This document shows positions 3,670 through 10,569 of a stretch of DNA of 64,000 nt, in pieces. The translations under genes and the position numbers were made by a program. The notes beneath the pieces are model-generated. The model was not told the DNA's origin, made no database searches, and saw only the letters and a program-made list of their open reading frames with translations. The stretch is from NCBI RefSeq assembly GCF_000153405.2, contig NC_020802.1:391883-455882 (forward strand), in the 5' to 3' direction. Every line of letters starts with the position of its first letter. The stretch's first letter is position 1. This DNA is from Psychromonas sp. CNPT3. GTDB taxonomy: Bacteria; Pseudomonadota; Gammaproteobacteria; Enterobacterales; Psychromonadaceae.

Positions 3670-3895
3670 ATCAAACAATCTGTGTGGGCACTAGATGATG
3701 ATTTCAAAAAAGTCCTTATGGTGATTTTGCATTGCAACTTCATTAAGAGGACAAAAAGAATCAATATCAGTGACACACGAATTAATTCATTAATTCAGAA
3801 TAACAACAAGTACTTTTCACTAGTTGATTAGTTACTTAGTTTTAGTCAGTAATATTGAGTCGCATTGTTGGTAACAACATTGCAAATTAAACTTT

Positions 3896-5440
<1,545 letters not shown>

Positions 5441-5528
5441 TACGAAAGAAACACGTTTAGTGTCCACACAGATTGTTTGATTAGAATGATAAAGAGATGT
5501 ATAGATAATTGTATCGCTTATAAAGAGC

Positions 5529-5570
5529 GGTGAGGTCGGCTTTGATTTTTCAAATCTGTCCAGACCCACA
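5529..5570 (+). pseudogene. tRNA-Ile 3'-half remnant in rrn spacer
   Basis: The stretch GGTGAGGTCGGC...TTCAAATCTGTCCAGACCCACA copies the variable-arm, T-arm and acceptor 3' part of the adjacent tRNA-Ile (GGTGAGGTCGGC...TTCAAATCTGCCCAGACCCACCA). It lacks the 5' half and the anticodon arm, carries an altered central segment and ends CACA in place of CCACCA. It lies 12 nt upstream of the real tRNA-Ile and is best read as a partial duplication. Confidence 0.75.
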
Positions 5571-5582
5571 ATTACTTTAGTT

Positions 5583-5659
<77 letters not shown>

Positions 5660-5777
5660 ATTTTTGATTTACTCTGTGTTAAATGAAAGCTCGTTTAGAA
5701 AAGACTAAACTACGCCATCATTTGCCTTGATTAAATCCAAAATAATGACCAACTAATATCTATACAAAAACCATGTT

Positions 5778-5853
5778 GGGGCTATAGCTCAGCTGGGAGA
5801 GCGCCTGCCTTGCACGCAGGAGGTCTGCGGTTCGATCCCGCATAGCTCCACCA
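5778..5853 (+). tRNA. alaT: tRNA-Ala(TGC)
   Basis: A 76-nt tRNA with encoded CCA. The acceptor GGGGCTA pairs with TAGCTCC (one G-U), the anticodon TGC is at 5811-5813 in loop CTTGCAC, and the T-loop GTTCGATCC is canonical. It is the second spacer tRNA. Confidence 0.97.
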
Positions 5854-5943
5854 CTTCTTATGAAGTGTACCGACATGAAAACCGAGATAATAGAAGTTTT
5901 CGATAAGTTATTAAATTTATCAAAAACTTTTTTACGAAAGTTT

Positions 5944-5957
5944 GCTCTTTAACAATT
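5944..5957 (+). promoter_or_regulatory. boxA in the 16S-23S spacer
   Basis: GCTCTTTAACAATT repeats the leader boxA upstream of 23S, as expected for rrn antitermination. The rest of 5854-6319 is AT-rich spacer expected to pair with 23S flanks for RNase III processing. No other gene is seen in it. Confidence 0.85.
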
Positions 5958-6319
5958 AGGAAAGCTGATAAAGTTCTTATTTATCGCACAATAACAATGA
6001 ATAACTTAGGTTATTTGATTGGTGTGATAGATATAAACGAAATTGTTCTCAGTAATTAGTATTTATATTAATTACTGTAATCAAGCAAAAATAAAAACAG
6101 CTGCAATTCACGTAAGTGAAGTGCAGTTTGTACGTATCTACTCAGTTATTTATAACTGATAGGTGCACGAAAAACGAATGTGTTTTTCATAGTAAAATAT
6201 GAGGATCGCAAGCGTCTTGGAAACGACATATTATATCTAAATTTTATAATCTTATGTGTTTTTTGAATATTATTAATATTCATAAAAACGCTTAAAGACA
6301 GTATCTTTAGGTATTGTAT

Positions 6320-9211
<2,892 letters not shown>

Positions 9212-9341
9212 ACAATTCCTAAAAGTATTGTATTGAGTAACCAAGAGATGATTGTAATCAATCAAATACGTTTGCGAAGACATATTTTACGAAACAAATT
9301 GCAAGATTAGACACAATCCAGCTTTTCTAATTAAGATTTTT

Positions 9342-9460
9342 AGCTTGGCGATAATAGCGCTGTGGCACCACCTGATCCCATGCCGAACTCAGAAGTGAAA
9401 CGCAGTTGCGCCGATGGTAGTGTGGGGTCTCCCCATGTGAGAGTAGGTCATCGCCAAGCG
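9342..9460 (+). rRNA. rrf: 5S ribosomal RNA
   Basis: 5S rRNA of about 119 nt. It contains the conserved CCCATGCCGAACTCAGAAGTGA and ends ATGTGAGAGTAGGTCATCGC, with terminal-stem complementarity GCTTGGCG / CGCCAAGC. It closes the rrn operon; exact ends are approximate. Its 3' tail is re-used in inverted and direct copies downstream. Confidence 0.96.
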
Positions 9461-9474
9461 CCTAATTAACGATA

Positions 9475-9508
9475 AATCCCTGTTGACTGATGTCAACAGG
9501 GATTTTTT
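9475..9508 (+). terminator. rrn intrinsic terminator
   Basis: AATCCCTGTTGAC (9475-9487), loop TGAT, GTCAACAGGGATT (9492-9504), then further Ts. A perfect 13-bp stem plus T-tract right after 5S makes this a strong Rho-independent terminator. Confidence 0.93.
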
Positions 9509-10350
9509 CGTTATTAGCTTGGCTAGATGACCACTCTCACATGGGAAATAAACAGCCTGCCGTAGGCAGAAGCATATTGTGTGATAGTAGGGCGAGTTTG
9601 CCGACAGGCAAGTGTACGAGCGGAGGAGCTCCGCGACTCCTGTCCATCGCCCAAGCGCCTCTTTTTTTTAACCCTTCACTATTTCAAAGGGATTTTTTCG
9701 TTATTAGCTTGGCTAGATGACCACTCTCACATGGGAAATAAACAGCGCGGCGAAGGCATAAGCATATTATGTGATTTTAGGGGCGAGTTTGCCGGCAGGC
9801 AATTTTCTTGATCGGACTAAGCTCTGCGTGTCCTGGAAGGTATCGCGACAGCGATGTGTTTGATCGGAGGAGCTCTGCGGATCCTGTCCATCGCCCAAGC
9901 ACCTCTTTTTATAAACACTTCACTATATAAAGCAGATTTTTTCGTTATTAGCTTGGCTAGATGACCACTCTCACATGGGAAATAAACAGCGCGACGAAGG
10001 CATAAGCATATTATGTGATTTTAGGGGCGAGTTTGCCGGCAGGCAATTTTCTTGATCGGACTAAGCTCTGCGAGTCCAGGAGGGTATTGCCGACAGGTAA
10101 GTATTTGATCGGAGGAGCACTGCGAACCCTGACCGTCGGCAAGTGCCTCTCTTTATAAAAGACAAGAATAACCCAGTCGGTTTTGTCGATTGGTTTTTTT
10201 TCGTTAAAGGCTTGGTAATGACCTCTCTCACATAGGAAATAAACAGCGCCGCGAAGGCATAAGCATAATATGTGATAGTTGTTTATCTTTTACATCAGGT
10301 AAGCCCACAGGGCCTAAAATCGTTGAGAACTGTTAGTCGCCAAGCGTTTC
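9501..10350 (+). repeat. rrn-distal array of four units built from 5S-tail copies
   Basis: Four units start at ~9501, 9691, 9935 and 10192 (spacings ~190, 244, 257). Each opens with TTTTTTCGTTATTAGCTTGG followed by CTAGATGACCACTCTCACAT, which is the reverse complement of the 5S 3' end. Each closes with a forward 5S-tail-like piece (CATCGCCCAAGCGCCTC, CATCGCCCAAGCACCTC, CGTCGGCAAGTGCCTC, AGTCGCCAAGCG). A short hairpin/T-run stands between units. The unit interior (AATAAACAGC, GGCATAAGCATA, GCCGGCAGGCAA, GATCGGAGGAGC) is shared but is not 5S. Units 1-3 are near identical in their first ~50 bp and unit 4 is diverged. Two ~76-codon open frames here are by-products of the repeats. Confidence 0.85.
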
Positions 10351-10569
10351 TTTTTATCAATGTTCGCGTACTGCTTATCTATATGCGAGGTACAGTACCC
10401 GAATATTTTTTAATAGAGATCTAAAATGACTATAGAGATACATTGTTTAATTAAGTTTATGAATTTATAACGTTGATATAGGGTGGAAATAAGCTTTGAG
10501 AGTTCATACAGAGAGGTATTGGACAATAGTCACACTCTACTTTCATGAAAAGTAGAGGTGCTCTATTTT
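10351..10569. other. Gap between rrn-distal array and yciA, with a hairpin
   Basis: No gene is seen. A stem CTCTACTTT (10535-10543) / AAAGTAGAG (10549-10557) is followed on the + strand by a T-rich run at ~10563. It could be a final terminator for transcripts arriving from the rrn side, or the 3' end of the converging yciA mRNA. Confidence 0.5.

What the first reader, a model, noticed from the sequence alone, without database searches (positions are those of the whole stretch)
9431..10350. Array of inverted and direct 5S-tail copies with repeated terminators after the rrn operon
The 3' end of 5S (CCCATGTGAGAGT-GGTCATC-GCCAAGC) recurs inverted at the start of four tandem units and forward at the end of each. 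Around the main terminator, 5S tail and inverted tail form a palindrome of ~115 bp (9431-9546). Each junction repeats the logic tail / T-rich hairpin / inverted tail, so transcripts leaving the operon would meet up to four terminator-like structures, and readthrough RNA could pair with the 5S 3' end. Units are 190-257 bp and share a non-5S core. I know of no described element of this form.
Basis: seen in the sequence. Interest (0 to 1): 0.66.

Follow-up and report, generated by a model that had tools for sequence, protein, structure and literature searches.

The report
Tandem RNA cassettes behind ribosomal operons
Behind nine of this bacterium's ten ribosomal RNA operons sits a row of small hairpin-rich units made partly from copies of the 5S rRNA tail; they look like an amplified version of little-studied small RNAs that E. 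coli makes by reading past its ribosomal operons.

Summary
The array is real: four units (starts 9517, 9707, 9951, 10210) follow the 5S gene, and similar arrays follow 9 of 10 rrn operons. The genus is Psychromonas. The forward 5S tail is present in each unit but split by a structured module with strong covariation: 42 both-side changes against 15.2 in shuffles, a C-GNNA-G capped hairpin and a second hairpin with loop GAGCUCUGCGA. The module is in 23 of 24 Psychromonas genomes and in 9 genomes of 4 other families; the 14 outside hits that I examined, of 16, all lie within 0.7 kb downstream of a 5S gene. Closest known: E. coli RrA/RrB/RrF, sRNAs between rrn terminators T1 and T2 made by read-through (PMC8144298), members of the tRNA-linked repeats. 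Shared: place, copied 5S 3' end, terminator behind. Different: tandem arrays, inverted tail, another module. Homology to RrB is not shown. Psychromonas also carries dispersed modules with almost no 5S sequence, so a repeat-element reading stays open. Transcription, processing and function are inferred.

The parts
9344..9459 (+). 5S rRNA gene, source of the copied tail
   Evidence: Rfam RF00001, 103.5 bits
9474..9505 (+). intrinsic terminator T1, centre of the palindrome 9432-9545
   Evidence: 14-pair stem and T run; dG -21.9
9517..9659 (+). unit 1, one module: inverted 5S tail 9517-9545, variable hairpin, forward tail piece, module, 5S 3' end copy
   Evidence: 9511-9660 folds with closing helix GCUUGG/CCAAGC, -50.1 kcal/mol, z -1.5
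9586..9655 (+). structured module of unit 1
   Evidence: R2 84.3 bits, E 1.7e-18
9707..9903 (+). unit 2, two modules; inverted tail 9707-9735
   Evidence: R2 hit only on the second module, 9834-9900, 44.7 bits
9951..10147 (+). unit 3, two modules; inverted tail 9951-9979
   Evidence: R2 hits 10032-10077 (24.5 bits) and 10078-10144 (28.7 bits)
10173..10193 (+). terminator before unit 4
   Evidence: dG -8.1
10210..10346 (+). unit 4, decayed core; inverted tail 10210-10237, 5S-type end
   Evidence: no R2 match at E<=1
10361..10405 (+). hairpin followed by six T behind unit 4, terminator-like
   Evidence: dG -14.5; not listed by the consensus scan

Best explanation
Each unit is a small structured-RNA cassette of the tRNA/rRNA-linked-repeat kind, working like E. 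coli RrB. It probably arose when a hairpin module entered the tail of a duplicated 5S gene. It is kept in step with the host's 5S tail by recombination, and in Psychromonas it was multiplied into rows of 2-7 per operon. RNA polymerase that passes the 5S terminator would transcribe the units together with rRNA. The copied 5S end and the 5S-like closing helix would serve as a processing site, and the next terminator would end each unit, so RNA output would follow rRNA synthesis and growth rate. The GAGCUCUGCGA loop is the likely working surface, for a protein or RNA partner. Shown: anatomy, covariation, 5S linkage in five families, agreement with the local 5S tail. Inferred: read-through transcription, processing and function.
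For: Arrays behind 9 of 10 operons, 2-7 unit ends each, 39 counted. Covariation: A1, aligned on sequence, 95.6% of cells paired, 42 both-side changes vs 15.2 shuffled and 0-4 when slid. A2 251 vs 85.2, slid 7-46 and A4 across families 85 vs 26.7, slid 3-20; these two were fitted to the model and lean to it. Hairpin A cap: G first in 86 and A last in 89 of 95 loops. R1 in 23/24 genus genomes. R2 in 31/393 order genomes, 6/115 genera; the 14 outside-genus hits examined, of 16, all lie within 0.7 kb downstream of a 5S on the same strand, including 3 loci not used to build R2. GCTCTGCG loop core in 4 of 5 outside genera, with other stems. GAAAGTAGG in 9 of 13 unit copies where the genome's own 5S has it, in 0 of 65 where it has not. 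E. coli RrB: same place, copied 5S end, T1 read-through, processed RNA (PMC8144298; sequence L129).
Against: No expression data. Unit 1 folds only slightly better than shuffles (z -1.5). The exact loop core GCTCTGCG is in only 58 of 111 distinct rrn-linked module sequences, 66 with one T/C change allowed, and g6 outside the genus has a diverged loop. Some operon ends have no module: L012 here, 2 of 10 in G006, 1 of 9 in G022, 5 of 8 in G019. R1 and R2 do not recognise E. coli rrB. Dispersed modules almost without 5S sequence fit a repeat element as well. 109 of 115 genera sampled gave no R2 hit. No repeated promoter-like site on the + strand.
Confidence: 0.6

Rival explanations
1. Selfish or passive repeat: the module is a REP/MITE-like hairpin element that settled in 5S tails and spread between operons by gene conversion; it has no RNA function.
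For: Dispersed modules in some species (45 of 48 R1 hits in G019 away from 5S); of 62 distinct dispersed copies from three genomes 1 has the forward 5S tail and 0 the 5S end, and 48 of 62 keep the loop core GCTCTGCG, a larger share than of the rrn-linked ones. Their hairpins covary too. G-NN-A loops also stabilise DNA hairpins (recalled). Array length varies.
Against: Outside Psychromonas every hit examined (14 of 16) is 5S-linked on one strand. The loop core is shared by four outside genera while stems change. No mobilising gene or target duplication was searched for.
Confidence: 0.25
2. Back-up terminators only: tandem units insulate downstream genes from rrn transcription.
For: Strong terminators (dG about -13 to -25) at many junctions of the nine array loci, and T runs behind some units that could use the unit's own 3' hairpin; simple 5S-tail plus terminator rows without the module in G028.
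Against: In the window two junctions lack a separate terminator stem. Terminators do not need a conserved multi-hairpin module shared by five families.
Confidence: 0.08
3. Mere decay of tandem 5S duplications.
For: Decayed 5S copies that run into the module in L092, L101, L105; decayed 5S rows in L161.
Against: Decay does not give covarying helices or a non-5S module shared by five families.
Confidence: 0.05
4. Antisense control of 5S rRNA by the inverted tails.
For: 12-13 nt ungapped complementarity to the 5S 3' part, about 20 nt with small gaps; huge hairpin in read-through RNA.
Against: In other species the inverted tail is short or degraded (L098, L176), and pairing with the unit's own tail piece is predicted in 43 of 65 segments.
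Confidence: 0.02

Closest known systems
E. coli RrA, RrB, RrF sRNAs (5S-linked tRNA-linked repeats; PMC8144298)
   Same: Directly behind the 5S gene, after the first terminator; ends with a copy of the 5S 3' end, then a terminator; hairpin-rich; a 5S-like GAGTAGG followed by a GGGA-capped hairpin (read by eye in L129).
   Different: One copy in 3 of 7 operons with an 18 bp copy overlapping the 5S end; here 2-7 unit ends in 9 of 10 operons, 11-15 bp copy, inverted 5S tail in front, other module, 1-3 modules per unit. R1/R2 do not match rrB. GGA motifs, part of the CsrA signal of RrB, are depleted here (103 vs 124 +/- 7 in shuffles).
tRNA-linked repeats of tRNA operons, e.g. tyrT (22 TLRs in all at ten loci, 1-5 per locus, as stated in PMC8144298)
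   Same: Units that repeat the 3' end of the stable RNA upstream, up to several per locus.
   Different: Linked to tRNA genes; sequences not compared here.
REP/MITE-type intergenic repeats (recalled)
   Same: Short hairpin module also dispersed between genes in some Psychromonas.
   Different: The rrn-linked form keeps its place and strand in five families.

Membership tests
tRNA-linked repeat (TLR) / 5S-linked RrB type | located in or behind a tRNA/rRNA operon, directly downstream of the stable RNA gene | tested here: met
   9 of 10 own operons; outside the genus all 14 hits examined, of 16
tRNA-linked repeat (TLR) / 5S-linked RrB type | 18-19 bp at the 3' end identical to the 3' end of the upstream RNA gene | tested here: inconclusive
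   best exact copies are 11-15 bp (e.g. CATCGCCAAGCGCCT, 15): right position, shorter than the stated 18-19
5S-linked RrB type | lies between two terminators | tested here: met
   T1 9474-9505, then 10173-10193 and 10361-10405; two inner junctions lack a separate stem
5S-linked RrB type | transcribed by read-through and processed to 173/115-nt RNAs | not testable with these tools
   no RNA data
E. coli RrB RNA family (by descent) | sequence/structure homology | tested here: not met
   no R1 or R2 match in L129 at E<=10 with default filters
CsrA-binding sponge RNA | enrichment of GGA motifs | tested here: not met
   GGA 103 vs 124 +/- 7, ANGGA 20 vs 31 +/- 5 in shuffles, 9 arrays; one GGA after CATGG does recur at unit starts
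known Rfam family | match at gathering score | tested here: not met
   window: only rRNA and tRNA; array at E<=5 and 14 loci at E<=0.05: no other family over its gathering score
REP/MITE element | dispersed copies with defined ends and a mobilising enzyme or target duplication | tested here: inconclusive
   dispersed copies present; ends, enzyme and target duplications not tested

The most novel reading that the evidence does not exclude
An undescribed family of rRNA-operon-encoded structured RNAs, marked by a 5S-tail hairpin, a GNNA-capped hairpin and a second hairpin with loop GAGCUCUGCGA, exists in at least five families of the order; it is made by read-through in proportion to rRNA synthesis, binds a specific partner through that loop, and in Psychromonas has been amplified to dozens of rrn-linked copies as a growth-rate-coupled regulatory RNA.
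Probability: 0.4. Interest if true: 0.75.

Novelty: new variant of a known kind. Interest (0 to 1): 0.55.

Why it matters
Stable-RNA-linked repeats have been known since 1978 and had no known function before the E. coli RrA/B/F work, which gave modest phenotypes (as stated in PMC8144298). A lineage with 39 counted unit ends behind nine operons, clear covariation and a shared loop is a stronger system in which to ask what RNA read past rRNA terminators does. It also bears on why some rrn operons carry two terminators.

Tried and rejected
CsrA sponge by GGA count: not supported, the motif is depleted. CsrB itself is present in 23 of 24 genus genomes at E<=0.001, 12 of 24 over the family cut-off.

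Pairing of the conserved loop with rRNA of the same operon: no exact complement in 3801-9460; nearest is one mismatch to GCTCTGCG at 5839.

Own promoters: 6 promoter-like sites vs 3.1 +/- 2.0 in shuffles; the two on the + strand are at different places, one site on the - strand recurs in units 2 and 3. Small ORFs: they recur where the DNA repeats (for example on the - strand in units 1 and 2); coding was not tested further.

Sense of dispersed copies: gene upstream same strand in 21, opposite in 12 of 33 clusters; gene downstream same in 9, opposite in 23 of 32 (47 of the 66 hits were put in). A lean towards gene ends, too weak to conclude.

Homology to E. coli rrB by covariance model: not found.

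Inverted-tail helix P0: predicted in 43 of 65 segments of 24 genomes, no shuffled control; three genomes (G011, G037, G394) gave no segment, G003 and G019 none paired, and at least two segments are by eye not unit starts.

Literature: listings of searches (one gave none) showed no description of such arrays in Psychromonas; the library is open-access only. Besides PMC8144298 only PMC2405808 was opened, by find passages.

Full report
OBSERVATION. The window lies at 391883-455882 of a 3.05 Mb one-contig genome with ten 16S genes. Behind the 5S gene (9344-9459) four units start with an inverted copy of the 5S tail and end with a short forward copy of the 5S 3' end. Clean terminators stand before unit 1, before unit 4 and behind unit 4; between units 1/2 and 2/3 the separate stem is missing, though the T runs right behind units 1 and 2 could use a hairpin of the unit's own 3' part. 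Read-through RNA 9340-9660 would fold into one very long hairpin (z -8.2).

NOT AN ACCIDENT OF ONE LOCUS. The same kind of array follows 9 of the 10 rrn operons; the tenth (L012) has a second 5S and a tRNA instead. By end-marker count there are 2-7 unit ends per array, 39 in all (of the four in L017 two are separated from the rest by about 2.8 kb). Arrays are mosaics by eye: several terminator types and two versions of the first module hairpin (TTTGCC-GACA-GGCAAG and TATCGC-GACA-GCGATG) are shuffled between them.

ANATOMY. A unit reads: inverted 5S tail, short spacer, variable hairpin, forward tail piece (..GTGATAGTAGG), module, 5S 3' end (ATCGCCAAGCGCC), spacer, terminator. So the forward 5S tail is there, but split by the module. 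Units hold one, two or (once, L011) three modules. In three loci of relatives (L092, L101, L105) a decayed 5S copy runs through GTCTCCCCATGTGAGAGTAG straight into the module, and in L105 then into a 5S-type end. That is the likely origin.

THE MODULE IS A CONSERVED STRUCTURE. Alignment A1 (21 sequences aligned on sequence, 12 from the own genome and 9 from eight relatives) supports a closing helix, hairpin A with a C-GNNA-G cap and hairpin B with an 11-nt loop: 95.6% of cells paired, 42 cells with both sides changed against 15.2 in shuffles, and 0-4 when the partner strand is slid. The closing helix has no both-side change in A1; the support comes from hairpins A and B. A2, A3 and A4, fitted to the model and so leaning to it, agree. 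Cap: G first in 86 and A last in 89 of 95 loops found among 111 distinct rrn-linked sequences, 16 without a found loop; 35 and 38 of 40 among 62 dispersed ones, 22 without. The loop core GCTCTGCG is exact in 58 of 111 rrn-linked and 48 of 62 dispersed sequences.

HOW WIDE. Model R1 finds 23 of 24 genomes of the genus. The named records behind one exact pattern are all Psychromonas, 21 stretches, and two of their contig lengths equal contigs of G023 and G021, which names the genus. In 394 genomes of the order R1 found 27, of which 23 of the genus. R2, built with seven outside loci added, found 31 of 393 genomes and 6 of 115 genera: 22 of the genus and 9 others in families f6, f10, f15 and f25. 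Of 16 outside hits I examined 14: all lie within about 0.7 kb downstream of a 5S gene on its strand. Three of these loci (G080, G394, G104) were not used to build R2. Not examined: the G272 hit and one G394 hit. Hits without a 5S nearby exist in Psychromonas (L186, L187, L188), so linkage is not built into the search. The loop core GCTCTGCG is found in four of the five outside genera with different stems; g6 has a diverged loop.

KEPT IN STEP WITH THE LOCAL 5S. Where the genome's 5S has GTGAAAGTAGG, 9 of 13 readable unit copies carry GAAAGTAGG (7 of 9 such genomes; G012 has a variant, G011 gave no readable unit). In genomes with GTGAGAGTAGG none of 65 does; 10 of these carry GAGAGTAGG and most GATAGTAGG. 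Recombination with, or repeated formation from, the local 5S tail is inferred.

OTHER GENERA WITHOUT THE MODULE. In G028 short 5S-tail pieces, each with a terminator, stand in tandem (four copies in 620 nt of L140); G032 and G038 show similar decayed rows by eye. Of 40 fetched loci of 11 other genomes, 8 have a direct or inverted tail copy that at most 1 of 100 shuffles reaches; one of them is the R2-positive G037 locus. So tail copying behind 5S is scattered over the order, not universal.

DISPERSED COPIES. In G019 only 3 of 48 R1 hits, and 3 of 8 operon ends, are 5S-linked (read). In G006 25 of 33 hits (8 of 10 operon ends) and in G022 11 of 19 (8 of 9) are. Dispersed copies carry almost no 5S sequence (forward tail 1, end 0 of 62, against 70 and 60 of 111 rrn-linked). 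So the module can live without the 5S tail, which keeps the repeat-element rival alive. Which form came first was not tested.

WHAT IT WORKS LIKE. The E. coli RrA/RrB/RrF paper (PMC8144298; abstract, introduction, three results sections and part 1 of the discussion read) describes sRNAs between T1 and T2 of rrnA, rrnB and rrnD, made by read-through of T1, ending in a copied 5S 3' end that the authors suggest is an RNase E site, and interacting with Hfq and CsrA; they belong to the tRNA-linked repeats. The Psychromonas unit has the same plan. I therefore read the array as an amplified, variant stable-RNA-linked repeat. That it works like RrB is my best inference; that it descends from the same element is not shown, and the CsrA motif is depleted rather than enriched. 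Rfam has no matching family.

VERDICT. Real, conserved and structured; a new variant of a known but poorly understood kind; function open.

Noticed in passing
L017 (G000:C1 about 2678.9-2681.6 kb): The array behind one rrn operon is split by about 2.8 kb that includes a gene for an apparent secreted SGNH-type hydrolase (identified by eye only); array remnants continue on the far side.
   Followed up: no
L046 (G014), L106 (G019), L088 and L096 (G006): Arrays appear to end in, or be interrupted by, transposase-like sequence (IS630-like by eye), so rrn arrays may be insertion targets.
   Followed up: no
G010:C4:38734-40688, G019:C2:1611557-1612653, G015:C26:44273-45558: CsrB-family RNA hits occur in close tandem copies in several Psychromonas genomes; G006 is the only one of 24 without a hit.
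   Followed up: no
L012 (G000:C1:113342-113641): The one rrn operon without an array has a second 5S gene whose closing helix is changed on both sides (TTGACAAT/ATTGTCAA), followed by a tRNA.
   Followed up: no
L105 about 330-420, L101, L092, L161: Decayed 5S copies carry another palindromic insert (TTGTTTCCTTGAAC..GTTCAAGGGAC type) elsewhere in the 5S, in more than one family (by eye).
   Followed up: no
L038 / G019:C2:925.5-926.9 kb: Four modules about 400-460 bp apart in a tandem repeat next to what looks like the end of rpoC (by eye), on the same strand.
   Followed up: partly
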